From an uncultured Clostridia bacterium (GTDB lineage Bacteria; Bacillota; Clostridia; Monoglobales; Monoglobaceae), in contig CANQQJ010000015.1 in NCBI GenBank assembly GCA_947625905.1, forward strand, positions 1 to 64,000: DNA of 64,000 nt, given 5' to 3'. The translations under genes were made by a program, and so were the position numbers. This document shows, piece by piece, positions 34,817 to 51,379 of this stretch (its first letter is position 1; each line of letters begins with the position of its first letter). The notes below the pieces were generated by a model. It searched no databases. It was not told the DNA's origin and worked only from the letters and a program-made list of their open reading frames with translations.

Positions 34817-34880
34817 ATTATACATATTCCAACGTGGTTTACAAGAACCATTTGTCCTCAAAAATTATATTTTCTTCCTG
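34817..34880 (-). promoter_or_regulatory. Activator box and promoter of the importer/surface-protein run
   Basis: On the minus strand a box starting AGGAA (first base 34879), with core ATATAATTTTT and then GACAAAT, ends just before a -35 TTGTAA (34839-34844). A 16-bp spacer and -10 TATAAT (34817-34822) follow. From box start to -35 is 35 bp, the same as at four other sites in the window. Confidence 0.75.
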
Positions 34881-34958
34881 AAAAAAATCCGATTTTTCCA
34901 TCTCGTTTACCGCGCCTTCCGGGCGCCCGCAAATCGGCGGGATCTAAATTTTGAAACA

Positions 34959-35022
34959 AGGAAAAAAATATAATTTTTAGTGACAAATGTAGATTACAAA
35001 AAATATTTTTTCCTGATATAAT
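34959..35022 (+). promoter_or_regulatory. Activator box and promoter of the SGNH/EamA genes
   Basis: The box starts AGGAA at 34959, has core ATATAATTTTT and GACAAAT, and is followed by -35 TTACAA (34994-34999), 17 bp, and -10 TATAAT (35017-35022). It is a mirror copy of the box at 34848-34880. Confidence 0.75.
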
Positions 35023-35105
35023 CTAAAATACCGAAAACGAATCGGTCTGTGAGTGCTTGAGGAATTTATCGCGCGGGAAAACAAACCGTCTGAGAGGTGA
35101 TTTTT

Positions 35106-36236
35106 ATGAACAGCTCCGCGGAACAAAATAAAAAACCAAAATACATTGATGAAAATTTCAGAAAAAAATATGTTGATCTGACAGACGTTTCATTCAGGGA
35201 ATGTTTCGGCGAGCCGTTTTGTCTGCACGGACTTTTTAAGCCGCAAAGCCTTAAAGAATTCCGACGCATGCCTCGGGAATTTGAGACCTGCGCGCAGCTG
35301 AACGAGGCCGCCCGCCTGCTGATACGGCAGACAGCCGGCGCCCGTCTGCGGTTTTGCACCGATTCGCCGCAAATCGCCGTATCTGTTATTTTAAGCGGCG
35401 GCGATCCCGTGTTCCCGCATATACCTGCGACGGGCAGCCACGGTTTTGATATGTACTCAAGACCCGCGGGCTCGCGTCTCGCGCCCGTTTACGCGGCTTG
35501 CTTTATTCCGCATTTTGAGGACGACGGGGTGAGCTACAGCGGCGCGCACGTTTTCCCGACCTCGGCCATGCGAGAGATAACGATCCACTTTCCTCTGTTC
35601 GCGGAAGTGAAAGAACTGTACATCGGCTTAAACGATAAAGCGGCGGTCCTGCCGCCCTCACCCTACGCGGTCGAAAAGCCCGTCGTGTTTTACGGCTCAT
35701 CCATCACGCAGGGCGGGTGCGCGTCGCGGCCGGGCAACTGCTACAGCGCGGTTCTGTCGCGGCGCCTTGACTTTGATTATATAAATCTCGGATTTTCGGG
35801 CAGCGCCCGCGGCGATCGGGCGGCCGCGGAATATATATCAGAGCTGCCCATGAGCGCTTTTGTGCTCGATTACGACCACAACGCCGTGACCGACGATATG
35901 CTGCGCGAGACGCACCACGCGTTTTACAAAGCCGTGCGCGAAAAAAATCCGTCTTTGCCCATAATCATGATGAGCGCGCCCGTTCCTTCTCCCGCGCGGA
36001 TCGTATACAAACCCGACAGAAGCATGGAAAACTCGCGGCGGATCATAATCGAAAGCTTCCTCAAGGGAAAACAAAGCGGCGACAAAAATCTGTACTTCAT
36101 TGACGGAGAGTCGCTGCTCGGCGCGGCCGAAGCGGAGGATTGCCTTGTCGACCACGTTCATCCCACGGACCTGGGTTTTCGGCACATGGCAGACCGGATC
36201 GAGCCGGTGCTCAAAAAAGTTCTTTATGAAATATGA
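35106..36236 (+). CDS. SGNH/GDSL hydrolase with N-terminal beta domain (carbohydrate esterase-like)
   Basis: A 376-residue cytoplasmic protein. The ATG at 35106 is preferred over the in-frame GTG at 35097, because GAGAGGTG forms the ribosome binding site. Residues 1-165 are a beta-rich N-terminal domain of the SsfX3-like type. The catalytic SGNH domain follows: block I VVFYGSSITQGG (Ser nucleophile), block II NLGFSGSARGD (Gly), block III DYDHNA (Asn) and block V DHVHPTDLGF (Asp and His). Such enzymes often deacetylate sugars. Since there is no signal peptide, it should act on imported oligosaccharides. The box at its promoter places it in the rhamnose regulon. Confidence 0.85.
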   Translation: MNSSAEQNKKPKYIDENFRKKYVDLTDVSFRECFGEPFCLHGLFKPQSLKEFRRMPREFETCAQLNEAARLLIRQTAGARLRFCTDSPQIAVSVILSGGDPVFPHIPATGSHGFDMYSRPAGSRLAPVYAACFIPHFEDDGVSYSGAHVFPTSAMREITIHFPLFAEVKELYIGLNDKAAVLPPSPYAVEKPVVFYGSSITQGGCASRPGNCYSAVLSRRLDFDYINLGFSGSARGDRAAAEYISELPMSAFVLDYDHNAVTDDMLRETHHAFYKAVREKNPSLPIIMMSAPVPSPARIVYKPDRSMENSRRIIIESFLKGKQSGDKNLYFIDGESLLGAAEAEDCLVDHVHPTDLGFRHMADRIEPVLKKVLYEI

Positions 36237-36322
36237 AATATGAAATATAAAAATATAACTCGAAAATAACCGTTGTCAATATATCAGCATCGATCAAACT
36301 CTTGCTGTTTGGAGGGAAAACA

Positions 36323-37174
36323 TTGAATACTATTTTGCTGTTGATAATAATTCTGGGCATGGCGGCGCAAAACGTGCTGAAAAAGGCCTATGACGTGCGG
36401 ACCAACCAAAAAGGCGTGTTCGTATTCAACGCCGCGACTATCCTTGCCGCCACGCTCTTTTTCGTTGTGACAAACGGAGCGCATTTTGACTTTGAGGTCG
36501 GCGTTCTGCCCTACGCCGCGGGTTTTGCCGCCTCGTACGCGCTGAACGGAATATGCTTCGTTTACGCCATAGGCTGCGGATCGCTTTCGCTCACCTCGCT
36601 TGTGACCTCATATTCGCTGATGGTCCCCACTCTCTACGGACTGATCTTCCTGCACGAAAAAGCCGGGATATACTTTTATATCGGTCTGGCGATGCTCGCC
36701 GTATCGCTTATGCTGATCAATTATTCCAAATACGACACGAAAATTTCCGCAAAATGGCTTATACTGAGTTTTTTGTCCTTTTTGGGCAACGGCCTTTGCT
36801 GCACGATTCAAAAAGCGGAGCAGCTCGCCTTTAACGGCGGATACAAAAACGAGTTTATGATCCTCGCGCTTTTGATCGCGTTTATCGCGACGGGGCTCGT
36901 CGCCTGCGCGAAGGAACGCGGGGAATTTAAGCTTTCAATTAAAAAAGGCGCCCTTCTCGCGCTGGTCTGCGGCGCGGCAAACGGCCTCGTGAACCTTTTG
37001 GTCATGATCCTGTCCGCCGCCATGTCGGTCTCGGTAATGTTCCCGTTGATCTCGGCGGGCGGCATAGTGGTAACCTTTCTTATATCGTTCTTTATTTATC
37101 GCGAAAATCTTTCAAAAAAGCAATACGCGGGGCTTGCCGTCGGCATTTTGGCGATTTTGTTCTTAAGCATTTGA
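36323..37174 (+). CDS. EamA/DMT-family transporter
   Basis: About 283 residues with ten predicted membrane helices, matching the drug/metabolite transporter family of small exporters. A TTG at 36323 is taken as start because GGAGG lies 7-8 bp before it; the frame is open 21 bp further. It follows the SGNH hydrolase gene by 86 bp in the same direction and could share its promoter. The substrate is unknown; export of a sugar by-product is one possibility given the neighbourhood. Confidence 0.8.
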   Translation: MNTILLLIIILGMAAQNVLKKAYDVRTNQKGVFVFNAATILAATLFFVVTNGAHFDFEVGVLPYAAGFAASYALNGICFVYAIGCGSLSLTSLVTSYSLMVPTLYGLIFLHEKAGIYFYIGLAMLAVSLMLINYSKYDTKISAKWLILSFLSFLGNGLCCTIQKAEQLAFNGGYKNEFMILALLIAFIATGLVACAKERGEFKLSIKKGALLALVCGAANGLVNLLVMILSAAMSVSVMFPLISAGGIVVTFLISFFIYRENLSKKQYAGLAVGILAILFLSI

Positions 37175-37193
37175 CCCCGCCGCTCATATATTT

Positions 37194-38021
37194 TTACTCG
37201 AGCGCGTTTTCCTTGCGGTATTTGAGCGGCGTGACCCCCGTCTTGATCTTGAACAGTCTGCAAAAATACGGATAATTCCAGTTGCTCACCGTCTCGCACA
37301 CCTGCGATACAGTCATGTCCTTGTCGCTGAGCATACGCTTGGCCTCGTTGATGCGCGTGTTGGTGATATACTCGTTCACGCTGCAGTGAAAGCTGTTGTG
37401 GAACAGTTTGTAAAGCACGTTTTTGGAGACGCACAGCTCTTTGCAGAGGCTGTCCACCGACAGGTCGCTGCTCAGATTTTCCATCAAATATTTTTTGACC
37501 TGCAATTCAAAAAAATTCTGCTCGAGATAAACCATATCGCGGCTTATGATATAATTTACAAGCATGGCCGCGAGGTTAGCCACGCTCTGTATCTGTTCGT
37601 CGTTGTAAAAAGCAAGCCTGTTCCAATGCTTTTTCAGCGTCGACTTTTTTATGTCGGTCGACTTAATGCGCGCATAGACCTTTTCAAAATCCATGCTGCT
37701 GCGTATTCTGCCCATAATTATGTAGCCCACGATGTTTTCGCCGTACACGATCGGGAACGCGTAATCCACAAGTCCGGCATGACATATGTGCCTCTGAGCG
37801 CACTTATCCTTCTCGCAGCGGCGCAGTATCTCCTCGTCCGAGCACAGGCAGTCCTCTTGGCACCCGTTTTGCTGGATGTAACTGCAAAAATTGACTTCGG
37901 ATTCGACATATCTGGCGACAAAATTGAACTCTGTGTCAAGCACGCCGAGCTGTATTTTTGTGATGTTGTAAAAATCTCGGACTATGTTGTTAAGCTGTTC
38001 TTTTCTGTATAATATTTCCAT
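37194..38021 (-). CDS. AraC-family regulator with PocR sensor domain
   Basis: A 275-residue transcription factor. Residues 5-160 form a PocR-type ligand-binding domain (a PAS-like fold rich in Cys: FCSYIQQNGCQEDC and CEKDKCAQRHICHAGLVDYAFPI). The C-terminal 100 residues are an AraC DNA-binding domain with two helix-turn-helix motifs (LSDKDMTVSQVCETVSNWN and the closing GVTPLKYRK). PocR domains sense small metabolites, often linked to propanediol or sugar breakdown. It is transcribed away from an unassigned glycosidase whose promoter carries the shared box, making it the prime candidate for the regulator binding that box. Confidence 0.9.
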   Translation of the reverse strand: MEILYRKEQLNNIVRDFYNITKIQLGVLDTEFNFVARYVESEVNFCSYIQQNGCQEDCLCSDEEILRRCEKDKCAQRHICHAGLVDYAFPIVYGENIVGYIIMGRIRSSMDFEKVYARIKSTDIKKSTLKKHWNRLAFYNDEQIQSVANLAAMLVNYIISRDMVYLEQNFFELQVKKYLMENLSSDLSVDSLCKELCVSKNVLYKLFHNSFHCSVNEYITNTRINEAKRMLSDKDMTVSQVCETVSNWNYPYFCRLFKIKTGVTPLKYRKENALE

Positions 38022-38041
38022 GAGCTCATCCCCTCGATTTT

Positions 38042-38070
38042 ATTCTAATAAAATTCTGTAAAAATGTCAA
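38042..38070 (-). promoter_or_regulatory. Promoter of the PocR-AraC regulator
   Basis: On the minus strand TTGACA (38065-38070) and TAGAAT (38042-38047) are 17 bp apart, about 20 bp before the start codon, so the leader is very short. The shared box begins 16 bp away at 38086, so one bound regulator could affect both directions. Confidence 0.7.
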
Positions 38071-38085
38071 TATGTATTTTAAACA

Positions 38086-38148
38086 AGGAAAATTTTATAA
38101 TTTTTTATTACGATATGGACTTGAATATTATCCGGGCAAGTGTATAAT
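38086..38148 (+). promoter_or_regulatory. Activator box and promoter of the unassigned glycosidase
   Basis: A more diverged copy of the box (starts AGGAAAA at 38086, core TATAATTTTTT) is followed after the same 35 bp by -35 TTGAAT (38121-38126), 16 bp, and -10 TATAAT (38143-38148). Confidence 0.65.
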
Positions 38149-38194
38149 ATGAGCAGACGGATCAAAACAACTGTGAAAACTACGGAGGACTGTC

Positions 38195-40066
38195 ATGTAT
38201 AAAATAAACGTACCGATCAGCATTGACACATATCTGCGCTCGGACAAAGACGAGCTTTTGAAGAGACTGCGCGAAACAGACGCGGAAAGGGTCTTTGTGA
38301 CCATCGCCAAGCCCGGCGAACGCTCCGAGAAATTCGCCGTATTTAAAGAGATCATCGACTTTCTGCACGGCAGCGGATACGAGGTCGGCGCCTGGCTGTG
38401 GTCGTTCGAAGCCACGGACGAGAAGCCCTACACTCATACAATGCGCTGGGCAAACGGCGATACCGCTCCGTCTGTCATATGTCCGTCGGACGACGCGTAC
38501 CGCGCCTGGCTCGGCGAGTATCTGCGGGAACTGGCGGAGCTCGGACCCGACTTGATAATGCTCGACGACGACCTGCGCTACGGCTTTGTGAGGAACAAAT
38601 TCGGCTGTCTGTGCGAAAATCATTTGGATAAAATTTCCGAGATCCTCGGCGAACGCGTCACCGCCGAACAGATGAGGGAAAAGCTTCTTCGCGGGGGTCG
38701 AAACCGCTATCGCGACGCTTTTATCGCCGCGAACGGCTACTGGCTGGAGCGGTTCGTCCGCGAGATGCGCGAAGCGATAGACAAGGCGGACCCGAACGTC
38801 CGTTTCGGTCAATGCAGCTGCATGACCTCATGGGATATCGACGGCACGACGCCCGACCGCATAAGCCGCATTATGGCGGGCGGCACCAAACCGTTTTACC
38901 GCTTGATAGGCGCGCCGTACTGGGCGGCGCTGTCGCACCTGTGGGGGCAGCGGCTCCAGGACGTGATCGAGCTGAGCCGTATGGAAAAAAGCCGAAACCT
39001 CGATCCGGAGATAGAAATTTTCTGCGAGGGAGACGTTTATCCCCGCCCCAGATGGCACGTGCCCGCGGCGTATCTTGAAGGCTTTGACACGGCTGTGCGC
39101 GCCGCGAACTGCACGGACGGCATTTTGAAATACATGTTTGACTATACCTCGGGCGTCGGCTATGAACCCGGGTATATGCGGCGGCACCGAGGCAGCAAAG
39201 AGCTTTACTCCCTGCTGGACAAATATTTCGCGCCGAAAACATCCCGCGGCGTGCGCGTCTACGAATCGCAGCAAAAATACGCTACGCAGGAGATCTACGA
39301 GCGCATGGAGTATGACTGCGCGATCGAGAACATATTTTTCTCGCCCGCGGCGCAGATGCTCGCCTGCAGCGCGATACCCACGGTATATGAGGGCACGGGG
39401 ATATGCGGCATAGTGTTCGGCGAAAGCGCGCGCAGTCTGCCTCTTTCCGCCGCCGATAACGGCCTTATATTGGACATCGAAGCGGCAGAGCTTCTGCATC
39501 GGCGCGGTATAGACACGGGCATAGCCGACATCGGAGACGAGATCAGCGTCACCGAGGAGCACTTTTTCGCGGAGGACGAATACGTTTCTCTGTACGGCGG
39601 CGCAAAAGCGCGGCGCATCACGTTAAAAGACGGGGCCGAGCCTCAAAGCGAGTTTATCTCAAGCGGCGGCACCGAGACGGCGTCGTATTTCTACGAAAAC
39701 AAAAACGGTCAGCGCTTTTTGGTTTTCGCGTTTGAGGGATATTTTTCAGCGGAAAGCCTCAGGCGGCAATACACCAGAGCGCGTCAGTTAGCGGGCGCGG
39801 TCCGATACCTTTCGGGTAAAGATCTGCCCGCCGCCGCCAAAGTTGACGCCCCCGACCTTTATATGCAGTGCAAGGAAAAAGACGGCGAGCTCGCCGTGGG
39901 CTTATGGAACTTCTGCGTGGACAGCGTTCTCTCGCCCGAGATCCGTCTGACGGAACAGTATTCCGACATAACATTTATAAACTGCGGCGGCAATATGTCG
40001 GGCAACAGGGTCACTCTTTCCGATATACCCCCGTTCGGCTTCGCCGGCTTTAATGTGAAAATATAA
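38195..40066 (+). CDS. Putative TIM-barrel glycoside hydrolase of unassigned family
   Basis: A 623-residue cytoplasmic protein. The N-terminal 330 residues look like a (beta/alpha)8 barrel: strand ends GYEVGAWLWSFE (around 65), DLIMLDDDLRYG (around 130), VRFGQCSCMTSWDIDG and EIFCEGDVYPRPRW (around 280). The last resembles the nucleophile strand of GH42-like enzymes, so Glu near residue 281 and an acid in the DDD cluster are candidate catalytic residues. A Rossmann-like middle part and a beta C-terminal domain follow. I cannot assign a known GH family. It is preceded by the shared regulatory box and the divergent PocR-AraC gene, so it is probably part of the same sugar pathway. Confidence 0.6.
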   Translation: MYKINVPISIDTYLRSDKDELLKRLRETDAERVFVTIAKPGERSEKFAVFKEIIDFLHGSGYEVGAWLWSFEATDEKPYTHTMRWANGDTAPSVICPSDDAYRAWLGEYLRELAELGPDLIMLDDDLRYGFVRNKFGCLCENHLDKISEILGERVTAEQMREKLLRGGRNRYRDAFIAANGYWLERFVREMREAIDKADPNVRFGQCSCMTSWDIDGTTPDRISRIMAGGTKPFYRLIGAPYWAALSHLWGQRLQDVIELSRMEKSRNLDPEIEIFCEGDVYPRPRWHVPAAYLEGFDTAVRAANCTDGILKYMFDYTSGVGYEPGYMRRHRGSKELYSLLDKYFAPKTSRGVRVYESQQKYATQEIYERMEYDCAIENIFFSPAAQMLACSAIPTVYEGTGICGIVFGESARSLPLSAADNGLILDIEAAELLHRRGIDTGIADIGDEISVTEEHFFAEDEYVSLYGGAKARRITLKDGAEPQSEFISSGGTETASYFYENKNGQRFLVFAFEGYFSAESLRRQYTRARQLAGAVRYLSGKDLPAAAKVDAPDLYMQCKEKDGELAVGLWNFCVDSVLSPEIRLTEQYSDITFINCGGNMSGNRVTLSDIPPFGFAGFNVKI

Positions 40067-40107
40067 ATTTTAAGAAAAAAACTCATTAACATGTAACCCC
40101 CCTTAAA

Positions 40108-40147
40108 GCAAAAGACGCAGATCCCAAGATCCGCGCCTTTTGTTTTT
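40108..40147. terminator. Bidirectional terminator between convergent genes
   Basis: A long hairpin (CAAAAG..CGC..GATC pairing with G-T pairs around a CCAA loop) is followed by TTTTT on the plus strand. It lies between the unassigned glycosidase and the convergent CE7 esterase. Confidence 0.85.
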
Positions 40148-40154
40148 GCATGAT

Positions 40155-41120
40155 TTATATAAGCTCCGCAATAAACCGCAAGGTCATATCCTCAAAATCG
40201 GGAAGGTTCCCATGTCCGCAGTCGGGATAAATAAATATCTGTTTTTCCGACACTATCTTGTTATAAGCCGCAAAAACGGATGACGGCGGGCAAATGTTGT
40301 CCATCAGCCCGGTGCCGAACAAGACGTCTCCGCGTATCCGATCCGCAAAATTCTGAATGTCTATGTAGCCCAGCTTGGTAAACGTTTCCTCCTCACGCTC
40401 ATGTCTGGGGTCAAATAAAAGGAAGTATTCCTTAAGCTCCGAATAAGCCGGCATTGTTATATTCAAATCCCAAACGCGCTTATAGTCGCTGAGGAACGGG
40501 CACAGCACCGAAGCTTTTTTAATAATATTGGGCGCGAGCGCGGCGCACGCCATGGCAAGGCCGCCTCCTTGAGAGCCGCCGTAAGCCGCCACGCGGTCTT
40601 CGTCCACGTCCTCCATATCGGCCACTATCTTGGCGAGCAGTGCTGTGTCCAGAAATACATTGCGAAAATACAAATTATGCGGGTCGGGCTCGTCTATACC
40701 GCGGATTATCAAACCGTGATGGGTGTTTCCTCTCACCGGGTTTTTATCATCGGATCTTCCTCCCTGGCCGCGGCAGTCCATCGCGGCGACAACGAATCCC
40801 ATGCTCACATAACTCAGATAAGCGCCCCAGTCGCCGCTTTTTTCGCCGTATCCGTGAAATCTCAGCAGCGCGGGCGCTTTGCCCTTGATCACGGCGGGTT
40901 TCAGCAGCTTGACATAAACGCTTCCGCCGCGCGTGCCGGTAAAGCGCATATCATAGCAGACCGAATTCGGCACCTGAAACTCGCTCTTTTTGATCTCGAC
41001 CCGCGGGTCAAGACCGTTCATTTCCTCAAGCGCCGTTTTCCAGTATTCGTCAAAGTCCTTGGGGCACGGGTTGGTTCCCTTATACTCCCGCAGTTTTTCT
41101 ATCGGCATATCTATCGGCAT
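40155..41120 (-). CDS. Acetyl esterase, CE7 family (acetylxylan esterase / cephalosporin-C deacetylase type)
   Basis: A 321-residue cytoplasmic alpha/beta hydrolase of the usual CE7 length. Family signs are FHGYGEKSGDW, the CRGQGG motif, GGSQGGG with the Ser nucleophile (around residue 183), GLMDNICPPS with the Asp (around 268) and DCGHG with the His (around 300). CE7 enzymes remove acetyl groups from short xylo- or other oligosaccharides inside the cell. It has its own consensus promoter and is monocistronic. The substrate here may be acetylated pectic oligosaccharide. Confidence 0.9.
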   Translation of the reverse strand: MPIDMPIEKLREYKGTNPCPKDFDEYWKTALEEMNGLDPRVEIKKSEFQVPNSVCYDMRFTGTRGGSVYVKLLKPAVIKGKAPALLRFHGYGEKSGDWGAYLSYVSMGFVVAAMDCRGQGGRSDDKNPVRGNTHHGLIIRGIDEPDPHNLYFRNVFLDTALLAKIVADMEDVDEDRVAAYGGSQGGGLAMACAALAPNIIKKASVLCPFLSDYKRVWDLNITMPAYSELKEYFLLFDPRHEREEETFTKLGYIDIQNFADRIRGDVLFGTGLMDNICPPSSVFAAYNKIVSEKQIFIYPDCGHGNLPDFEDMTLRFIAELI

Positions 41121-41161
41121 ACAATAAACCTCCTAAAACAAAAAAATCAAATTTTACACAC

Positions 41162-41190
41162 ATTATATTCTCTGCAAAAACCGATGTCAA
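41162..41190 (-). promoter_or_regulatory. Consensus promoter of the CE7 esterase
   Basis: On the minus strand TTGACA (41185-41190), 17 bp, TATAAT (41162-41167): a perfect sigma-A type promoter about 42 bp before the start codon. I see no copy of the shared box. Confidence 0.85.
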
Positions 41191-41277
41191 TAAACTTTTC
41201 GACTTGATTTTTATATTATCGTCACTTTATATTGTCCGCGCCGAACATGCCGCGGCGGCCGCCCTGAGTTTTTAACG

Positions 41278-42009
41278 CTATAATCCGTACATGCTTCGGA
41301 ACCTTGAGGGAGGTATTCCCTTGTGTTTTTTAAAAACGTTGCAAAAATAATAAGCGTTGTCAAAGCCGCATTCCTGCGCGATCATCGCGATGCTGAGTTC
41401 GGTGCGGCAAAGCAGCGCCTCCGCCTTTTTTATCCGCATATTGTTGAGGTACCGCATGGGCGGCATCCCGACGGTTTTTTTAAAATGCAGGGTCAGCCCC
41501 GCGACCGAAACGCCGGCCGCTCCCGCGGCGTCGCGGAGGCTGATTTTTTCCTTGATGTGCTCCTCAAAAAATTTCTCCGCGCGCTCCGTTGTGCCGTCGG
41601 ACCGCTTTCCTCCCGCGAGGGCGTCCATCTCGATCTGCGCAAAAATATCGTTCAAAAAATGCCGCTTGTGCCTGTCGTTTCCTATTTCGCAGGCCTTGAC
41701 CAGATATTCAAAGCTTGAAATTATCCTCGTTTTATTCTCGATATATATTTTTCCGAAAGGCAGCTCCGCGCGGCCGGGGTTTTCAAAGCGAAGATAATAA
41801 AACGTCAGCGGCTTCGGCATTTCCCTTTCGAAATATATGTTATCGGGAAAGCATACAAGCTCGTTTTCGCCCGCCTTTTCGTTTTTATCTTTCATTTTAA
41901 AGCTTATCTCGCCCTTTAATATAAAAAACAGAGAGTTTTTGGGCTGAAATCCGCGGTTCATTATAAATTCGCTTTTTGAAACGAGTCTGCAGTCTATGAC
42001 CTCAAGCAT
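41278..42009 (-). CDS. AraC-family transcriptional regulator
   Basis: A 243-residue protein. The N-terminal 130 residues are a cupin-like sensor (FILKGEISFKMKD and ELVCFPDNIYFE). The C-terminal 100 residues hold two helix-turn-helix motifs: ISLRDAAGAAGVSVAGLTLHFKKTVGMPPMRYL and ELSIAMIAQECGFDNAYYFCNVFKKHKGIPPSRF. It is transcribed away from the FAD oxidoreductase/GH78-like operon and most likely controls that operon and itself from the shared promoter region. Confidence 0.92.
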   Translation of the reverse strand: MLEVIDCRLVSKSEFIMNRGFQPKNSLFFILKGEISFKMKDKNEKAGENELVCFPDNIYFEREMPKPLTFYYLRFENPGRAELPFGKIYIENKTRIISSFEYLVKACEIGNDRHKRHFLNDIFAQIEMDALAGGKRSDGTTERAEKFFEEHIKEKISLRDAAGAAGVSVAGLTLHFKKTVGMPPMRYLNNMRIKKAEALLCRTELSIAMIAQECGFDNAYYFCNVFKKHKGIPPSRFRSMYGL

Positions 42010-43487: not shown

Positions 43488-45560
43488 ATGAGCGTATTTA
43501 AAACCGCGGCGCCGATATGGATAAAGGGCCGGGAAAAAGAGATGAATGTCTGCGCGGAGCTTTTGTGCTCCGTTCCGCGCGGACGCGGCGGCGTTCTGCG
43601 TGTCTGCGGAGCGAGCTTTTACAACGTTTTTTTCGACGGCGTGCAGGTTCATTTCGGTCCGGCACGAAAGGCGCGCGGCAGCTGCGCCGCGGACGAGATA
43701 AAAGTGCCGCGCGGCACAAGCGAGATAACCATCCGCGTTATCGGATACAACTGTCCGTCGTTTAACGGAGTCGCCGCTCCGTCCTTCATAATCGCCGAGC
43801 TCGAAACGGACGGCGGTATCGCCGCGGCCACGGGGCGCGGCGGCTTCAAATGCTTTGAGAATAAGCGGCACGTCCAAAAAACCGTCAGGTACTCGTTTCA
43901 GCGGCAGTTCACCGAAAGCTGGGACATGACAAAGGAGCTTGCCGAAGCCGAGTTTGCGAGAGCAGAGCCGAACGCGGACTTCATAATGCGTGACGTGCCT
44001 TACGCGGACATTGCCGAATACCGAGCGGAGCCCATGCCTCTTGAGGGGAAATGGCGCATGGAGAACAAAAACAGATATCCTCTCAGAAAATACATAGCAA
44101 ACCCGGAAAACACCGCGCACTTCCCGATGTCCGAGCTTAAGTCTCGCGCGTATGAGGAATGGCTGAAGATCAAAACCGATTACCGCGCGGCAAAAAGCCC
44201 CGAAAAGCTTTTCGTCGGAGACTGCGGGCTTTGGGACATGGGTTTGGTAACAGCGGGATTCTTTCGGATAAGGCTGCGGACGAAAGCAAACACCCGCATA
44301 ATACTCTCGTTTTCCGAGCAGGCGGACGAGGAATACAGCCTGTATGTCGCCGAGTTCAACACCGTGAACCTTATAGAATGGACGCTCCCCGAGGGCGAAT
44401 GGGACCTGACGAGCTTTGAGCCGTATTCCGCGCGATATATCGAGATGATAGTTATGGAAGGCGAAGCGAAACCCGAATATGTCGGAATGAATGAGTTTGC
44501 CTTCCCGCAATCGCTGATAGTGTCAAGCGCGCCCGAAGACGCTGAGCTCGCCGAGATATACAACGCGGCGGTCCGCACATTCCGCCACAACGTTATAGAC
44601 ATATATATGGACTGCCCGTCGCGCGAGCGCGCGGGCTGGCTGTTCGACAGCTTTTACACGGGCAGGGCGGAAAAATTTTTCACGGGCGGCTCGGTCGTTG
44701 AAAAAGCGTTTTTGGATAATTACGCCAAAGGCGGCAGCAGAGAAGAGACCCCCGGCATGGTGAATATGATCTATCCCGGCGAAGTCACCCACGGCAAGTT
44801 CATTCCGCAGTGGGGAATGTGGTACGCGCTTGAAATATGCGAATACATAACCGAGCGCGGCGGCGGAGCCGACAAGCCTAAGTTTAAGGCACAGCTCGAG
44901 GCTCTTGTCAAATATTTCGTGGGCTTTGAAAATGAATTCGGGCTGCTTGAGAGACTTGACAATTTTAATTTTGTCGAGTGGTCGGCCTTAAACGACAGAG
45001 TGTATGACGTGAGCTGGCCCACAAATATGCTTTACGCGAAAATGCTCTCAAGTCTCGGCGAGGTATACGGGCGCGATGACCTGAAAAAGCGCGCGAGCAG
45101 CTTAAACCGTGCGATCCGAAACATGGCGTTTGACGGCGGGCTCTTCTGCGACCGCGCGGTGCGGAACGCCGAGGGACTCCTCGAAAACACCGACGAGCGC
45201 TCCGAGACGACGCAGTATTACGCGCTGTTTTTGGGCACGTCGACGGCGGACGACAGCACATACGAGCCGCTGCGCAAAATGCTCGCAGATGTGTTCACGG
45301 AGCCCGCGCGAGAGAACTATCCCGACATTTTGAAATCGGAAATGTTTATGGGAGTGTATTTAAAGATAGATGTTCTGCTTGATATGAACATGCCCGACAA
45401 GGCGCTCAAAGAGATAAAATCAACTTTTCTGCCGATGGCGAGAGAAAGCGGAACGCTCTGGGAGCATCTTTCGGGCTATAAGAGCCGCGACCACGGCTTT
45501 GCCTCTTACGCGGCCGCGGCGATAGACAAGGCGCTGCGCTTGAAAAAAGAAAGGAGCTGA
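43488..45560 (+). CDS. GH78-like family protein (alpha-L-rhamnosidase fold)
   Basis: A 690-residue cytoplasmic protein. ATG 43488 is used; a GTG nine bases earlier is in frame. Residues 1-330 are beta-sandwich domains, and residues 340-690 form an (alpha/alpha)6 barrel. The barrel entry reads YMDCPSRERAGWLFDSF, matching the DCPQRDERMGW landmark of GH78 alpha-L-rhamnosidases with the general-acid region kept. A late TLWEHLSGYKSRDHGFASYAAA segment stands where GH78 has its second acid and His. The N-terminal domains differ from the classical enzyme at 48532-51096, so specificity may differ. It follows the oxidoreductase gene by 31 bp. Confidence 0.75.
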   Translation: MSVFKTAAPIWIKGREKEMNVCAELLCSVPRGRGGVLRVCGASFYNVFFDGVQVHFGPARKARGSCAADEIKVPRGTSEITIRVIGYNCPSFNGVAAPSFIIAELETDGGIAAATGRGGFKCFENKRHVQKTVRYSFQRQFTESWDMTKELAEAEFARAEPNADFIMRDVPYADIAEYRAEPMPLEGKWRMENKNRYPLRKYIANPENTAHFPMSELKSRAYEEWLKIKTDYRAAKSPEKLFVGDCGLWDMGLVTAGFFRIRLRTKANTRIILSFSEQADEEYSLYVAEFNTVNLIEWTLPEGEWDLTSFEPYSARYIEMIVMEGEAKPEYVGMNEFAFPQSLIVSSAPEDAELAEIYNAAVRTFRHNVIDIYMDCPSRERAGWLFDSFYTGRAEKFFTGGSVVEKAFLDNYAKGGSREETPGMVNMIYPGEVTHGKFIPQWGMWYALEICEYITERGGGADKPKFKAQLEALVKYFVGFENEFGLLERLDNFNFVEWSALNDRVYDVSWPTNMLYAKMLSSLGEVYGRDDLKKRASSLNRAIRNMAFDGGLFCDRAVRNAEGLLENTDERSETTQYYALFLGTSTADDSTYEPLRKMLADVFTEPARENYPDILKSEMFMGVYLKIDVLLDMNMPDKALKEIKSTFLPMARESGTLWEHLSGYKSRDHGFASYAAAAIDKALRLKKERS

Positions 45561-45562
45561 TT

Positions 45563-46432
45563 TTGGTGAGGACGGGTATCTCGTTTAATATGTACGGAGA
45601 AGGATACAATCTCTACGGCCCCGACTGTTACAAAAAAATAAGGGAGCACGGCTATTCATGCGTGGACTTCGCGCTGGGCAACACCGACACGCCCGTGTAT
45701 AATTCGCCGCATAGCGAGGCGAAGTCGATACTTTTGCGCGAAAAGGCGCGCGCCGACGCGGAAGGAATAGAAATTTGGCAGGTGCACGGGCCGTGGCGCT
45801 GGCCGCCGCGGGATCTCGCTTCGGAGGACAGAGCCGAGCGCATGGAAAAAATGAAAAGGTCCATTGAGTTCTGCGGCATCCTCGGATGCAAAAACTGGGT
45901 GATACATCCCATAATGCCGCACGGGATCGAAGATATCGGCACGGGCAGAGAACGATCGACCCGAGACATGAATCTGGAATTTATGAGCGGGCTTTTAAAA
46001 ACGGCAAAGGACAACGACGTTACGATCTGTTTTGAAAATATGCCGATGCCCGAGTTTTCGCTCGCGTCGCCAAAAGATGTGCTGGAGTTTGTAAGGACCG
46101 TGGAAGACGACAATTTTAAGATATGTCTGGACACGGGCCACGTCTCCGTTTTTGACGGAGCGGACCCGGCGCAGAGCGTGAGAGAGCTGGCGGATGAAAT
46201 AAGCGTTCTGCATGTTCATGATAACAAAGCGGGAAAAGACCTGCATTTAATGCCCTATCTCGGATTTATAGACTGGGCGGAATTTTCAAAAGCGTTAAAG
46301 GACGTCGGTTTCGGCGGCGTGCTGTCGCTTGAAACGTGTTATCCGCCGATGCCGAGTATGGAGCTTTTTGATGAGCTTTGCGCTGTCCAGGGAAAAATAG
46401 CCCGAAAGATCGCGGATTCGGCGTCGGGTTAA
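45563..46432 (+). CDS. Sugar phosphate isomerase/epimerase (xylose-isomerase-like TIM barrel)
   Basis: A 289-residue protein starting at TTG 45563 (GTG 45566 is also possible); AGGAG is 6 bp before. It has the AP_endonuc_2 fold: YSCVDFALGN, the WQVHGPW metal region, NWVIHPIMPHG, ICFENMPM with Glu, CLDTGHVSVFDGAD, VLHVHDN and LSLETCYPP, which supply the divalent-metal Glu/Asp/His set. Such proteins isomerise or epimerise keto-sugars. It starts 2 bp after the GH78-like stop codon, so it is translationally coupled. The substrate is unknown. Confidence 0.88.
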   Translation: MVRTGISFNMYGEGYNLYGPDCYKKIREHGYSCVDFALGNTDTPVYNSPHSEAKSILLREKARADAEGIEIWQVHGPWRWPPRDLASEDRAERMEKMKRSIEFCGILGCKNWVIHPIMPHGIEDIGTGRERSTRDMNLEFMSGLLKTAKDNDVTICFENMPMPEFSLASPKDVLEFVRTVEDDNFKICLDTGHVSVFDGADPAQSVRELADEISVLHVHDNKAGKDLHLMPYLGFIDWAEFSKALKDVGFGGVLSLETCYPPMPSMELFDELCAVQGKIARKIADSASG

Positions 46433-46435
46433 AAC

Positions 46436-46464
46436 AAACAGGGCTAAATTAATTAGCCCTGTTT
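46436..46464. terminator. Bidirectional terminator
   Basis: A near-perfect palindrome, AAACAGGGCTAA with its complement, flanked by A and T runs. It lies between the convergent isomerase-like and HAD genes and serves both. Confidence 0.9.
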
Positions 46465-46467
46465 ATT

Positions 46468-47196
46468 TTATTCATCCTCTTTCAGAAGCTTCTCCGCCGC
46501 CTCTGGGAAGCGTCGGTAATCGTCAATTCGTATAAACCGAAAATCAGACAGATAAACACATTCGTCGTTTCCGCCTTGGCCGTAGTCGTCTCCGAAATAC
46601 ACGACATTCTCGCGCGGGATATTATTTTCGCGGCAGTAGCTTGTCAAGGCATAGAGCTTGTCGTAGGGCTTCGGCGCCATATCGAACGAGGAGGAGCCTC
46701 CCACAAACACGTTGTATTCCGGGAACGCGGCCGCGACCTCCCGATATATGCGCCGCCTCTTTTTCCTGTCGGGATCGTATGACAGCTTATCTTTCGGATC
46801 GGCCGCGGTCCCCAAAATCGGGAATGTAACGCAGCCCGAGGGATGGTATTCCACGGGATCGCCTCTGAAATCCGTCAGGCCGTATCTCTCGCGAAGGGCC
46901 GCGGCCCTTTTTTCGATCTCCGCCCGATCGCACGGAACGCTTATGTCCGAGATCGGCTCAAGCTCGCCCGTCTCCCGCCGATAAACCGCGTACTGCATGC
47001 CGTAGTTTCCGATAATATCTATCGGGTACCGTCCCAATTGCTTCCATATGCGCATACACTGTCCGGCGCCCGCCATCAACAGCTTATACCGCTCCGACAA
47101 AGCGTCCAGCGCTTTTATCACGGCTTTCTCGGGAGGGGTCTTATGCTGAGTTAAAGTTCCGTCCAGGTCCATTGCCACAAGTTGTATTTTGCTCAT
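46468..47196 (-). CDS. HAD-superfamily phosphatase (phosphomannomutase-like cap)
   Basis: A 242-residue cytoplasmic protein. Motif I is AMDLDGTLTQ, with Asp10 as nucleophile and Asp12 as acid; motif IV is YFGDDYGQGGNDE near the C-terminus. The cap region, with IIGNYGMQYAVYRRETGEL, is like that of IIB-type (Cof/PMM) phosphatases acting on sugar or polyol phosphates. It starts 18 bp after the AraM stop codon in the same minus-strand operon as the GH78 rhamnosidase. The pairing suggests it could act on the glycerol-1-phosphate made by AraM, but this is inference. Confidence 0.8.
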   Translation of the reverse strand: MSKIQLVAMDLDGTLTQHKTPPEKAVIKALDALSERYKLLMAGAGQCMRIWKQLGRYPIDIIGNYGMQYAVYRRETGELEPISDISVPCDRAEIEKRAAALRERYGLTDFRGDPVEYHPSGCVTFPILGTAADPKDKLSYDPDRKKRRRIYREVAAAFPEYNVFVGGSSSFDMAPKPYDKLYALTSYCRENNIPRENVVYFGDDYGQGGNDECVYLSDFRFIRIDDYRRFPEAAEKLLKEDE

Positions 47197-47214
47197 TTAT
47201 GTTTCACCTCGCGT

Positions 47215-48480
47215 TTATTCTCTGAAAAACAGCGCGTAATGCAGCCAAAGCACCGAATAGCGGTTCCTCAGGTCCTTGGCGTACCAAACCGCGTTTTGCA
47301 GCTTTTCTTTTCCGTATTCCGCCTCGAAATCTTCGATCCGCATTCCCACCGTGCTCAAATAGGCGCTCATCTCTTCCGCGGACGGAGTCTCGGACAGGAC
47401 CTTTTTGATCTCGGGCCATTTTTCACGATATATCTTTATATAATCCTTCTGATATGTTCCCGCGTCTTTTTGCAGGGTAATGACCTCTTCGGCTGCCGCG
47501 CCGTATATTTCTCTGATTTTTTTCTCCCACGCCGCCTCGTTGAATTCCGAAGCCTGCGCCGGGCTGTCTGTCTTTAAAAGCTTTTCACGCAGCTTCTGGA
47601 TATACAGCGCCGAGTATGCCACATCCACGCCGTGGGTAAAATACGGCTCGCGGTTCATGATCCCCAAAACCTCAAAAAAATGCGACATATGATGCTCGCT
47701 ACCGCTGGCGGGACGGGAATTTCCCGCGAACGCCATGGCGATGCCGACTCCGACCAGCGCCTCCGTCAGGGTGCGGACCGCCTCCTCGTCGCGCGCAAGC
47801 AGCTTTTCGCCGAGGTCCTTGGTCTTATCCAGCATTTCTCGGGTCATTCCGTACACGTATTCGCATAAATATTCACCGTTGACCAGGGCGCTCAGCTTCC
47901 AGTCGTTCAGAGACGAAAACTTGCCCAGAATATCCCCGTATCCCGAAACGATCATTTCCATAGGGGCGTTTTTCAGCACATCAACGTCTCCCAAAATCAC
48001 CTTCGGGACATGGGTCTCATAGCTGACCTTCACGTTGTTGAATATCATAGCGGCGACCGTCGACGCGTAGCCGTCCATCGACGGCGCCGTGGCCGCGATA
48101 AAATACGGCAGACCCGATATAAAGCTGACATATTTGCACAGGTCCTGTATTACTCCCGAGCCGACGCCGACGATCAGATCGGTATTTTCGGTAATAAGGG
48201 AGCGCATCTTTTCGACAGCCTCCTCGTTTGGGATAAGCACTCCGCCGCCCGTTTCATACACCAGCAAGTTTTCAAGCCGGCCGCCGAGCTGCCGCTCCGC
48301 GGCTACGCCGCATACCGGATAGGTATTATTATCCGCGGCAAGCAAAATGCAGCGGTACCCCTCCGCCAGCTTTCCAAGCTCCGATATCGCGCCCTTTCTT
48401 ATGACCACCCTTTCAACGGGGCAGGTGTGCGTTCTCCCGCAGCCGCATTCCTTCGGCCGAAGCAGCGATTCAAAATCCAT
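47215..48480 (-). CDS. araM: sn-Glycerol-1-phosphate dehydrogenase (AraM/EgsA family)
   Basis: A 421-residue member of the iron-containing alcohol dehydrogenase superfamily. Family signs are VGVGSGVIQDLCKYVS (nucleotide binding), AATAPSMDGYAS, a DVLKNAPMEMIVSGYGDILGKFSSL metal segment (Asp) and SGSEHHMSHFFE with the two metal His residues. AraM of Bacillus reduces dihydroxyacetone phosphate to sn-glycerol-1-phosphate with NADH. It is preceded by AAAGGAGATATACA. Lying between a rhamnosidase and a phosphatase gene, it could use the dihydroxyacetone phosphate from rhamnose breakdown. The symbol follows family naming, not proven activity here. Confidence 0.88.
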   Translation of the reverse strand: MDFESLLRPKECGCGRTHTCPVERVVIRKGAISELGKLAEGYRCILLAADNNTYPVCGVAAERQLGGRLENLLVYETGGGVLIPNEEAVEKMRSLITENTDLIVGVGSGVIQDLCKYVSFISGLPYFIAATAPSMDGYASTVAAMIFNNVKVSYETHVPKVILGDVDVLKNAPMEMIVSGYGDILGKFSSLNDWKLSALVNGEYLCEYVYGMTREMLDKTKDLGEKLLARDEEAVRTLTEALVGVGIAMAFAGNSRPASGSEHHMSHFFEVLGIMNREPYFTHGVDVAYSALYIQKLREKLLKTDSPAQASEFNEAAWEKKIREIYGAAAEEVITLQKDAGTYQKDYIKIYREKWPEIKKVLSETPSAEEMSAYLSTVGMRIEDFEAEYGKEKLQNAVWYAKDLRNRYSVLWLHYALFFRE

Positions 48481-48531
48481 ATTGTATATCTCCTTTATAA
48501 ATTTATATTTTTATCCGTATTTTCTTTATTT

Positions 48532-51096
48532 TTAAATAAATATCCAGTTATCGCTTTCTTTTTTCGCTCGGTGCAGTCCCGCGCGCAGCGTGTATTTCGC
48601 GCCGTCAAGCTCGAGCTCGATCTCCGTTCCGAACGGCGCGTTGACCATGATATACTCATTGCCGAATTTTCTCTCATATTTTAAGTACAGACCGCCGCAG
48701 AGCAGCGGAAACAAGATCTCATAATACGGCAGCTCTTTAGGCAGCTTGGGCCTGAGCCCGTATTTTTTGGCCGGTTCCGCGATCGCAAAGCCCGCCAGGC
48801 TCCTGCACAAAAACGCAGCCGACGCGCCGTGCATGGGATGGTTGTGGGAGTTCATTCCCTCGTCTTTTTTGAGCTCGTATCTCTCCCATATGGTCGTGGC
48901 GCCGTTTTCGATCATATAACCCAGCGAGGGATATTCGCGCCGAGTGAACAACTCCCACGCGAGATCGGTATAGCCGTATCCGATCAACACGTCAAACAGC
49001 ATGGGCGTGGTGATATTTCCGGTTTGCAGGCGCCCGCTCCGCCGAACCGAGCCGGCCAGGATCTCCGCCGCTTCCGCTCTGTCGCGCTCGGGCAGGATAT
49101 CCAGAAACAGAGCGAGAGCCTGACAGCCCTGCGCGCCCTGATAAACCCTGCCGCCCGAGACCCATTTTTTCAAAAACGCCGCCCGCACCCGCTCGGCTTC
49201 ACGCCCGAACCGCGCCGCGTCCTCGGTTTTGCGCAGACGCTCGGCAAAACGCTCCAAAAGGCGGTACTGCATGTAATGAACAGCTGTCGATATCATCTCG
49301 CCGGGCAGATACCGCGAATGAGCCGCTCCCGGCTCGTATCCCTCCAGGACCTCGGTGCCGCCGTCGCCTATCGTTTTGACCACGCTGCAGGCATCCTCGG
49401 GTCCCGCCCAGTCTCCGTAGTAAGAATAAGAAACGATCCCGTCCTTCTCGCGCGATTTTAAATATTCGCTCCACCGCGCAAGTCTGTCATAGTGAGCGGC
49501 GATCAAATCGGCCGAACCCGTCGCGCGGAAGTGCTCCTCCACCGCTATAAAGTACGCGGCGCAGACGGGATCCGCGGGCCGCTCGCCGAAAATAAACGGA
49601 GCGGTGCAGGTGATGCGTCCGAGCTCGTCCTGCTCGTTGGCAATATCGGCCGCGATCTTTTCAAAAAACTTAGGTATATTAAACATATACGGCATTGCCA
49701 TAAAGCGCACGACAGCGTCGTTCATCCAGCCCATTCGCTCGTCTCTCTGAGGACAGTCGCTCGCTATCGTATGAAGATTGCAGCGCTCGGTGCGGACTGC
49801 CGCGCGGTAAATTTCATTCGCCAACGCGCTGCCGCAGCGGAAAAAGGCGTCCGTGTCCAGATCGGTATAAAACTGCAGCGCGGCGACCGAGATATCGCCT
49901 TCCCATTCGCCGTCCACCGTCAGCTCCGCGTACCGAAAGCCGTGGTACGTAAACTCGGGCGCGTAGTCGATATGGCAGCTCCCGCCGCGGCAGATATATT
50001 GGTCGGCCGCTTTTGCGCCGCGCAGAGGTGCGGTGAACAGCCCGCCCTTCTCATCCAGAAGCTCCGCGTGCCGCAAAATCATTCGGCATCCCGCCCCTGC
50101 CGTTCCGTCCGCGGTCAGGCGGACCACGCCCGCCAGGTTTTCGCCGAAATCATATATGCGTTTTTCTCCGATTCGAAACGAGTTGATCGGGCGTATGACC
50201 CGCTTGACGCGGACGGGCTCCATCGTCTCCGCGGTAAATCGCTCGGGCGCGAAGTCGGCAAATTCCGCGCGGGCGGTTCGCGCTTCCGCTGTCTCGTCAT
50301 AGGTTTCGCCGTCAAACAGGTGCGCGCGCGTGATCGGCCCGAGCGACGCCGTCCAGCTGTCGTCCGTCGCGATAATTTTCTCGCTTCCGTCCGAAAAATA
50401 CAGCGCAAGCTGCGCGTTCAGGTACATATTGCCCATGAACTCGATCGGGCGGACCTCGGACAAATTGTCAAGATATTTTCCGTAATTTTTGCGCCAGCCG
50501 CCGCACACGATTATGTCCAGCCTGTTCTCTCCCACGCGGAACAAGGACGGCTCCGCGATGTCGATAACATATCTGCATTCCTTTTGATACGCCGTAAACG
50601 CCGGCGTCAAGCGGTACTCGCTGAGAGGCGCGCGGTTGACGTACGCCTTATCAAGCCCGATCCCGCAGTGATACAGCACCGCCCTTTCGGGCAGCGCGGA
50701 CAAATAAAAGGTTTTGGAAAAATACTGTGCCTCGTGCGCCGTTTCAAGCGGAGAACGTATCCATCCGCCGAGCTGTTTCTCATAGCATGCGGTCTTGAAC
50801 CACGATGCCGCGCTTCGGCTCGCGCGGCCCGAATCGTCAACGAGCTCCACGCTCCAATCAACCCTCGCGCCCGAGGGCAGCGGAGCGCCGTCATACACCG
50901 CCGTCTGCCGATCGCTTTTGACAAGGCCGCTGTCCCAAAGCGTCTCGCCGCGGTGCCGAACCGTGATACGATACCCGCTTTGCATCGCTCCGGCGCTTCC
51001 CTCGGCGCCCCAGCTGAAGCGCGGCGTTCCGCTTGCGTCCGCGGCGTACGGCTGTTTGCAATAATTCACTCTCAAGTTAACCGGTCTGAACTTCAA
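48532..51096 (-). CDS. Alpha-L-rhamnosidase, GH78
   Basis: 854 residues counted from TTG 51096. An earlier in-frame TTG at 51180 lies only 5 bp past the -10 box, so it cannot be translated; AAGGGGG stands 8 bp before 51096. Domains in order: a concanavalin-like N-terminal domain (VNYCKQPYAADASGTPRFSW), a beta-sandwich with FSKTFYLSALPERAVLYHCGIG, a second sandwich with YDFGENLAGVVRL, and an (alpha/alpha)6 catalytic barrel with DCPQRDERMGW (around residue 450) and TTIWERYE (around 736), the residues that bind rhamnose and supply the acids. A C-terminal beta domain closes it. It cleaves terminal alpha-L-rhamnose. It has no signal peptide, so it works on imported oligosaccharides, and it is the first gene of the operon with araM and the HAD gene. 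Confidence 0.93.
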   Translation of the reverse strand: MKFRPVNLRVNYCKQPYAADASGTPRFSWGAEGSAGAMQSGYRITVRHRGETLWDSGLVKSDRQTAVYDGAPLPSGARVDWSVELVDDSGRASRSAASWFKTACYEKQLGGWIRSPLETAHEAQYFSKTFYLSALPERAVLYHCGIGLDKAYVNRAPLSEYRLTPAFTAYQKECRYVIDIAEPSLFRVGENRLDIIVCGGWRKNYGKYLDNLSEVRPIEFMGNMYLNAQLALYFSDGSEKIIATDDSWTASLGPITRAHLFDGETYDETAEARTARAEFADFAPERFTAETMEPVRVKRVIRPINSFRIGEKRIYDFGENLAGVVRLTADGTAGAGCRMILRHAELLDEKGGLFTAPLRGAKAADQYICRGGSCHIDYAPEFTYHGFRYAELTVDGEWEGDISVAALQFYTDLDTDAFFRCGSALANEIYRAAVRTERCNLHTIASDCPQRDERMGWMNDAVVRFMAMPYMFNIPKFFEKIAADIANEQDELGRITCTAPFIFGERPADPVCAAYFIAVEEHFRATGSADLIAAHYDRLARWSEYLKSREKDGIVSYSYYGDWAGPEDACSVVKTIGDGGTEVLEGYEPGAAHSRYLPGEMISTAVHYMQYRLLERFAERLRKTEDAARFGREAERVRAAFLKKWVSGGRVYQGAQGCQALALFLDILPERDRAEAAEILAGSVRRSGRLQTGNITTPMLFDVLIGYGYTDLAWELFTRREYPSLGYMIENGATTIWERYELKKDEGMNSHNHPMHGASAAFLCRSLAGFAIAEPAKKYGLRPKLPKELPYYEILFPLLCGGLYLKYERKFGNEYIMVNAPFGTEIELELDGAKYTLRAGLHRAKKESDNWIFI

Positions 51097-51184
51097 ATTC
51101 TCCGCCCCCTTCGTTCGGACATCGGCCGCGCCTGAAATTTTATTTTGGCCGCGGCAAAAATCCGTTTTATTCCGTTTCAATAAA

Positions 51185-51249
51185 ATTATACACGTTTTTC
51201 TGTATGATTTACAAGGGCCATTTGTCCTTAAAAATTATATTTTATTCCT
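51185..51249 (-). promoter_or_regulatory. Activator box and promoter of the GH78/araM/HAD operon
   Basis: On the minus strand the box starts AGGAA (first base 51249), with core ATATAATTTTT and GACAAAT. After 35 bp comes -35 TTGTAA (51209-51214), then 18 bp and -10 TATAAT (51185-51190). Confidence 0.75.
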
Positions 51250-51315
51250 GAGCGCCCGTCGATCCGCCTTATTCTAAGGCGCCGTTCCGACGCCGCGCCG
51301 AAAGCATTTTACAAA

Positions 51316-51379
51316 AGGAAAAAAATATAATTTTTAGTGACAAATATTGATTACAAAAAACTGTTTTTTCCTGTATAAT
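51316..51379 (+). promoter_or_regulatory. Activator box and promoter of the SGNH/rha operon
   Basis: The box starts AGGAA at 51316 and is identical to the one at 34959 over its first 30 bases. It is followed by -35 TTACAA (51351-51356), 17 bp, and -10 TATAAT (51374-51379). About 230 bases of leader follow before the first start codon; I see no clear structure in it. Confidence 0.78.

What the first reader, a model, noticed from the sequence alone, without database searches (positions are those of the whole stretch)
34817..51379. Five copies of one promoter-proximal box define a candidate rhamnose regulon
A box of about 30 bp (starts AGGAA, core ATATAATTTTT, then GACAAAT in the four best copies) begins at 34879(-), 34959(+), 38086(+), 51249(-) and 51316(+). 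In all five the first base lies exactly 35 bp upstream of the first base of a -35 element, with a 16-18 bp spacer to TATAAT. Fixed spacing just upstream of -35 is the classical place for an AraC-type activator. The controlled units would be the importer plus surface-protein run, the SGNH/EamA genes, the unassigned glycosidase, GH78/araM/HAD, and SGNH/rhaB-rpiB-rhaA-rhaD. I found no copy at the CE7, FAD-oxidoreductase or GH127 promoters. I know of no described operator with this sequence.
Basis: partly seen in the sequence, partly recalled or inferred. Interest (0 to 1): 0.88.

Follow-up and report, generated by a model that had tools for sequence, protein, structure and literature searches.

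The report
Operator of a PocR-type AraC activator
A short DNA element found before five promoters is the likely binding site of a neighbouring sugar-gene activator; related bacteria carry the same kind of site beside the same kind of regulator, but among the loci compared only this genome has it at rhamnose genes.

Summary
Four (34879-, 34959+, 51249-, 51316+) are near-identical and have no equal in the 2.96-Mb genome. The fifth (38086+) is degenerate.

The box is a direct repeat with a 21-bp period, (A/G)GGAA...(A/G)GGA(A/C) or GTGAC, ending at the -35: the layout of an AraC-family activator site.

Relatives decide it. Upstream of 34 PocR-AraC genes, 11 carry .GGAA-N17-GGA(A/C); shuffles give 0.38 and 42 other AraC genes give 0. 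A model from those 11 sites alone (box and -10) ranks the four strong boxes 1-4 in the window but misses 38086. At 38086 the gap to the regulator's own -35 is 15 bp, as in 9 of 18 operator-linked relatives, though in none of the window regulator's own clade.

So PocR-AraC (37194-38021) is very probably the regulator. The rhamnose link is not conserved: no convincing site at 20 rhaA loci of relatives. Recurrent targets there are an EamA transporter and the unassigned glycosidase, twice on another contig than the regulator. The effector is unknown; the arginine needed for 1,2-propanediol in Salmonella PocR is glutamine here.

The parts
34850..34879 (-). Box 1 (strong), AGGAAGAAAATATAATTTTTGAGGACAAAT; -35 TTGTAA 34844-34839, -10 TATAAT 34822-34817; before the importer operon (33193-34578 and on)
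34959..34988 (+). Box 2 (strong), AGGAAAAAAATATAATTTTTAGTGACAAAT; -35 TTACAA 34994-34999, -10 TATAAT 35017-35022; before the SGNH/EamA genes
38086..38115 (+). Box 3 (degenerate), regulator-adjacent; -35 TTGAAT 38121-38126, -10 TATAAT 38143-38148; before the unassigned glycosidase
   Evidence: weak by sequence; position 15 bp from the regulator's own -35
51220..51249 (-). Box 4 (strong), AGGAATAAAATATAATTTTTAAGGACAAAT; -35 TTGTAA 51214-51209, -10 TATAAT 51190-51185; before GH78/araM/HAD
51316..51345 (+). Box 5 (strong), AGGAAAAAAATATAATTTTTAGTGACAAAT; -35 TTACAA 51351-51356, -10 TATAAT 51374-51379; before SGNH-rhaB-rpiB-rhaA-rhaD
37194..38021 (-). PocR-AraC regulator (PocR sensor domain, AraC HTH), proposed reader of the boxes
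   Evidence: Pfam PF10114 and PF12833; footprints, tree, helix
38042..38070 (-). Predicted promoter of the regulator, TTGACA-17-TAGAAT, 11 of 12 matches
31325..34578 (-). Importer: solute-binding protein and two permeases (unit of box 1)
35097..37174 (+). SGNH esterase and EamA-like transporter (unit of box 2)
   Evidence: EamA 25.9 bits, just under Pfam's cut-off of 28.2
38195..40066 (+).
46468..51180 (-). GH78, araM-like and HAD genes (unit of box 4)
51472..56955 (+). SGNH, rhaB, rpiB-like, rhaA, rhaD (unit of box 5)

Best explanation
The box is the operator of the PocR-AraC activator encoded at 37194-38021. Two subunits would bind in tandem to half-sites (A/G)GGAA and (A/G)GGA(A/C) or GTGAC, 21 bp apart, the proximal one reaching the -35, so that the bound protein recruits RNA polymerase to promoters with poor -35 hexamers (class II activation, as AraC at araI; recalled). 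The 38086 site beside the regulator is the degenerate local copy and serves the glycosidase; the four strong sites in two divergent intergenic regions connect, in this genome, an importer, SGNH/EamA, GH78/araM/HAD and SGNH-rhaB-rpiB-rhaA-rhaD to the same regulator. Shown: sites, geometry, occurrence of such sites beside related regulators, uniqueness in the genome. Inferred: binding, activation, and that the inducer comes from rhamnose-containing glycans.
For: 21-bp direct repeat at fixed distance from the promoter. .GGAA-N17-GGA[AC] upstream of 11 of 34 PocR-AraC genes, shuffles mean 0.38 and maximum 3 of 34, other spacings 0-2; 0 of 42 other AraC genes. A model from the 11 ortholog sites ranks the four strong boxes 1-4 with the -10 term (box alone: 1, 2, 4, 5); clade-only models without window letters put the four strong boxes at ranks 1-4 (five sites) and all five among the first six (six sites); 299 of 300 column-permuted models put none in the top 8. 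15-bp gap to the regulator promoter, as in 9 of 18 operator-linked relatives. 'SK' recognition helix in 19 of 19 operator-linked regulators against 3 of 15 others. Operator with matching geometry before GHx-EamA operons on another contig than the regulator in two genomes.
Against: 23 of 34 PocR-AraC rows lack the strict pattern, the window's own upstream region among them. 38086 is missed by the ortholog model, and its rank falls to 65 or 242 with some clade models. The 15-bp gap is not found in the window regulator's own clade. Of 25 GHx homologs scored only 3 have a good site upstream. The exact-pattern search of 19 genomes gave 11 places against 9 for the reversed control, so outside the regulator-adjacent sites it shows nothing beyond chance. 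No binding or expression data.
Confidence: 0.8

Rival explanations
1. The boxes are read by another AraC-type regulator of the window (41278-42009 or 59236-60162) or of the genome, and the likeness to PocR-AraC sites reflects a common AraC layout.
For: The genome has 30 HTH_18 matches, and 21-bp tandem sites are usual for AraC-family proteins (PMC3870299).
Against: 0 of 42 other AraC genes carry the pattern upstream; the recognition helices of the two other window regulators differ from the SK type; the box models are built from PocR-AraC-linked sites only.
Confidence: 0.12
2. The boxes are a repressor site or an AT-rich promoter element (UP-like), and the fixed place reflects promoter duplication.
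For: The two right-hand promoters agree in 25 of 34 bases beyond the box and share TTTTTTCCT, inverse to the box start, before the -10; the spacers between paired boxes are somewhat alike (score 33 against 14.7 with s.d. 6.0 for shuffles).
Against: GGAA half-sites 21 bp apart recur beside related regulators in other families with different flanks; -35 hexamers there are poor, as at activated promoters; leaders after the promoters are not alike.
Confidence: 0.06
3. The set is a general pectin-glycan regulon and the rhamnose genes are included only because rhamnose is one of the sugars released.
For: Targets of related regulators include GH28, GH127, EamA and GHx; the window cluster also holds CE7, GH127 and SGNH genes.
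Against: The strong boxes here stand before rhaB-rpiB-rhaA-rhaD and GH78, and none stands before GH127 or CE7.
Confidence: 0.35

Closest known systems
AraC-family RhaR regulons of Bacillales, Bacteroides and Enterococcus (PMC3870299, passages read)
   Same: direct-repeat motif with 21-bp periodicity, rhamnose catabolic genes as targets
   Different: whether those regulators carry PocR domains was not seen; their logos and half-site sequences could not be viewed
PocR of Salmonella and PocR-like regulator of Lactobacillus reuteri (PMC11264322 sections 2.1 and 2.2 read; PMC3162504 passages)
   Same: PocR sensor domain plus AraC HTH, transcription activator; RNA-polymerase tyrosine kept
   Different: Salmonella Pcob has two boxes of 20 and 48 bp, 52 bp apart, box II 9 bp from the -35; R51 needed for 1,2-propanediol is Q50 here; targets differ
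AraC at araI (recalled)
   Same: tandem half-sites, proximal one reaching the -35, class II activation
   Different: sequence, sensor domain, effector

Membership tests
AraC/XylS-type tandem activator operator | two half-sites in direct repeat about 21 bp apart | tested here: met
   window boxes and ortholog spacing peak
AraC/XylS-type tandem activator operator | site next to the -35 of the target promoter | tested here: met
   first base 35 bp before the -35 in all five; -10 at +57 to +59 in 9 of 11 strict ortholog sites
AraC/XylS-type tandem activator operator | bound by an AraC-family protein and activating | not testable with these tools
   no experiment
PocR regulators | PocR domain with AraC HTH | tested here: met
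   PF10114 88.9 bits, PF12833 61.8 bits
PocR regulators of the Salmonella kind | NCBIfam equivalog cut-off | tested here: not met
   NF047788 95.6 bits against a cut-off of 500
PocR regulators of the Salmonella kind | 1,2-propanediol residues R51 and D64 | tested here: not met
   Q50 and D62
AraC-family rhamnose regulon | sites at the rhamnose catabolic genes of this genome | tested here: met
   51316+ before SGNH-rhaB-rpiB-rhaA-rhaD, 51249- before GH78
AraC-family rhamnose regulon | sites conserved at rhamnose genes of relatives | tested here: not met
   20 of the 35 rhaA-bearing genomes examined; best score 17.1 against 32.6-35.4 for the strong boxes; 7 bare-pattern matches with a loose -10, none just before rhaA
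AraC-family rhamnose regulon | response to rhamnose | not testable with these tools
   no expression data

The most novel reading that the evidence does not exclude
A PocR-AraC module that elsewhere in the class serves a glycosidase/EamA pair has been rewired in this lineage: copies of its operator, in two divergent promoter pairs, capture a whole rhamnose-glycan programme from import to rhaBAD, and its PocR domain, lacking the propanediol arginine, senses a new ligand from rhamnose-containing glycans.
Probability: 0.45. Interest if true: 0.6.

Novelty: new member of a known kind. Interest (0 to 1): 0.5.

Why it matters
It gives a sequence-defined operator and a named regulator for a group of PocR-AraC proteins in Clostridia; six searches of the paper library showed no description of it. 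It allows regulon prediction in such genomes, points to a glycosidase without a family and an EamA transporter as a recurrent unit, and offers a testable case of regulon expansion.

Tried and rejected
Own-genome pattern had one N too few (spacing 20); its 34 hits (reversed control 20) serve only as an off-register yardstick. The correct pattern gave 40 hits (reversed control 20): the two left-hand boxes are the only exact matches, the two right-hand boxes are two of five one-mismatch places. The other three are C33 (open frame of 478 codons over it), C49 (159 codons) and C35 (L184, intergenic before an ABC permease, box 26.9, no -10 at +56 to +60). Only 30 of the 40 places came with loci and were scored. 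L186 is intergenic and likewise lacks a -10.

59225+ beats 38086 with window-derived models but is a ribosome-binding site and start codon.

Pattern in 100 relatives at 2 mismatches: three other genomes with one hit each (two of the same genus, alike, without AGGAA); not followed.

Exact pattern in 19 regulator-bearing genomes: 11 places in 7 genomes, reversed control 9. Two are window boxes, four are the known regulator-adjacent sites, five (L235, L237, L238, L240, L242) have no -10 at the right distance.

GHx homologs: of 26 places, 25 had a usable upstream stretch; 3 score above 20 (L214, L221, L225; L214 is the same site as L137), 22 do not, the window's own among them. Some of the 25 may be inside operons or are partial genes.

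1,2-propanediol as effector: not supported by the residue comparison.

GHx identity: no PDB match by sequence, no Pfam, no NCBIfam.

Rows not taken: several full-length PocR matches at about 24-29% identity (L030-L033, L035, L036 among them) were not fetched for the footprint test; 34 rows (window, 33 others) were used. Near-identical pairs among them: L084/L140, L085/L146, L145/L147.

Full report
OBSERVATION. The five boxes are at the stated places, each with its first base 35 bp before a -35-like hexamer and a spacer of 16-18 bp to TATAAT. Four match AGGANNNNNNTATAATTTTTNNNGACAAAT exactly; the own genome (2.96 Mb in 68 contigs, 94% complete) has no other place within 2 mismatches and one at 3. 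A looser pattern finds the two left-hand boxes exactly and the two right-hand ones with 1 mismatch; three other places have 1 mismatch, none with a promoter at the right distance and a clear intergenic place. The fifth box, 38086, departs from the first pattern at 4 positions (counted by hand) and ranks only 6th in a leave-one-out scan.

ANATOMY. AGGAA at position 1 recurs as AGGAC (left-hand copies) or GTGAC (right-hand copies) at position 22, a direct repeat of 21-bp period; the -35 begins at position 36. Rodionov and co-workers report direct repeats of 21-bp periodicity for AraC-family rhamnose regulators of Bacillales, Bacteroides and Enterococcus (PMC3870299, passages read). The two right-hand promoters are alike beyond the box (25 of 34 bases) and share TTTTTTCCT, inverse to the box start, before the -10; leaders are not alike, while the spacers between the paired boxes are somewhat alike.

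CROSS-SPECIES TEST. I read 260 bp upstream of 34 PocR-AraC genes (window and 33 others; one row 240 bp), away from the gene. GGA-GGA pairs peak at spacing 21 with 15 pairs; every other spacing from 8 to 45 has 6 or fewer; on the opposite strand spacing 21 has 3. The stricter .GGAA-N17-GGA[AC] is in 11 of 34 rows; 300 dinucleotide shuffles give a mean of 0.38 and a maximum of 3; other spacings from 12 to 35 give 0-2; the opposite strand gives 1. Nine of the 11 also have a -10 at +57 to +59, shuffle mean 0.04. The 11 hold one near-identical pair (L084, L140), and the window's own upstream region is not among the 11.

BLIND SCAN OF THE WINDOW. A model of the 11 ortholog sites with a -10 term gives 51249-, 34879-, 51316+ and 34959+ as the four best places of both strands (23.2, 23.1, 18.3, 18.3; next 13.2); by the box alone they rank 1, 2, 4, 5; 38086 is not found. 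Models from the clade of the window's regulator, box only: with six sites ranks 1, 3, 4, 5 and, for 38086, 6 of 127,942 (rank 2 lies in the solute-binding protein gene). I had first noticed the L080 site by eye against the window, so I left it out: with five sites the strong boxes rank 1-4 and 38086 ranks 9. Leaving out one more, 38086 ranks 6 to 65 and the strong boxes 1 to 7; with three sites only, the right-hand boxes fall to 13-14 and 38086 to 242. Of 300 column-permuted models, 299 put no box in the top 8.

THE FIFTH BOX. The regulator has a strong predicted promoter, TTGACA-17-TAGAAT (38070 to 38042, minus). From its -35 to the first base of box 38086 is a gap of 15 bp. Among 18 orthologs to which I assigned an operator the gap is 15 in 9 (two near-identical pairs among them), 16 in two and different in seven; the seven include all five assigned members of the window regulator's own clade. 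With the -10 at +57 this makes 38086 the likely, decayed counterpart of the regulator-adjacent site, not more than likely.

REGULATOR. The window regulator falls in a supported clade of seven (98/92) with L080, L133, L083, L136, L141 and L143; operator-linked rows lie in two clades, most others in a third. All 19 operator-linked rows (window, 11 strict, 7 assigned by model score, of which L080, L085 and L146 are weakest) have 'SK' in the first recognition helix, against 3 of 15 others. The rows are related, so the Fisher value of 8e-7 is not a clean probability; with the 11 strict rows alone it is 0.003.

TARGETS. First genes beside the regulator in relatives: EamA-like (L080, L083, L085, L137, L143, in or leading the operon), GHx homologs (L080, L137), a DegT aminotransferase group (L082, L084, L134, L140, L142, L144; Pfam run on two of them), and single cases such as GH28, alpha-amylase, an S-layer protein; L083 also has a GH127 67% identical to the window's. 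In G362 and G127 an operator with the right geometry precedes a GHx-EamA operon on another contig than the regulator found (L221, L225). GHx homologs occur in 17 of 382 class genomes; 10 of these are among the 17 of 391 with a close regulator (hypergeometric 2e-11, phylogeny not corrected). But only 3 of 25 GHx upstream stretches hold a good site. rhaA is absent from the 11 same-genus genomes held and present in 35 of 100 relatives; in the 20 rhaA loci examined the best model score is 17.1, 4 kb from the rha genes, against 32.6-35.4 for the strong boxes and 18.0 for 38086. That model contains the window's strong boxes.

MECHANISM. Best reading: a tandem AraC-type activator site that reaches the -35, read by the neighbouring PocR-AraC protein; the regulator-adjacent copy is the old, weak one and the four strong copies connect an importer, SGNH/EamA, GH78/araM/HAD and SGNH-rhaB-rpiB-rhaA-rhaD. 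The close place of box 38086 to the regulator's own promoter also allows autoregulation (inference). The inducer is not known. Salmonella PocR residues R51 and D64, needed for 1,2-propanediol (PMC11264322, sections 2.1 and 2.2 read), align with Q50 and D62; the polymerase-contact tyrosine Y200 aligns with Y178.

NOVELTY. The layout is known. The operator sequence with this regulator family and target set did not turn up in six searches of the paper library; the logos of PMC3870299 and RegPrecise could not be viewed, so a similar motif may be recorded there. I file it as a new member of a known kind.

Noticed in passing
59225-59255 (+): Good match to the distal half of the box that is the Shine-Dalgarno and start codon of the AraC gene at 59236; a trap for motif scans.
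   Followed up: yes
35003-35015 and 51361-51373 (+), approximate: TTTTTTCCT, inverse to the box start, lies in the -35/-10 spacer of both right-hand promoters and not in the left-hand ones; perhaps a further half-site.
   Followed up: partly
L184 about 1500-1535 (own genome, contig C35): Box-like tandem repeat before a CUT1-type ABC permease gene without a -10 at the usual distance; perhaps a site of another AraC-type regulator.
   Followed up: partly
L095 (own genome, contig C5), 8893-9699 and 12084-13343: A second PocR-AraC gene (26% identical) lies near a second araM-like gene, 61% identical to the one in the window.
   Followed up: no
38195-40066 (+): The unassigned glycosidase has homologs in 17 of 382 class genomes, often with the regulator, yet matches no Pfam, NCBIfam or PDB sequence; a conserved FDDDFR-type motif suggests an enzyme.
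   Followed up: partly
57051-59024 (-): GH127 gene weakly like aceric acid hydrolase (76 bits, cut-off 950) and 67% identical to a GH127 beside the regulator in L083; hints at rhamnogalacturonan II.
   Followed up: no
48532-51180 (-): The listed TTG start at 51180 lies at or before the predicted transcription start of box 4; the in-frame TTG at 51096 after a purine-rich stretch is the likelier start.
   Followed up: no
41190-41225 (-): Poor box with TATAAT at +58 before the CE7 gene; not supported by the clade models.
   Followed up: partly
3299-3988 (-) and 60725-61690 (+): A capsid-scaffold-like protein (DUF4355) and a DUF6017 protein flank the sugar cluster; possible traces of mobile elements.
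   Followed up: no
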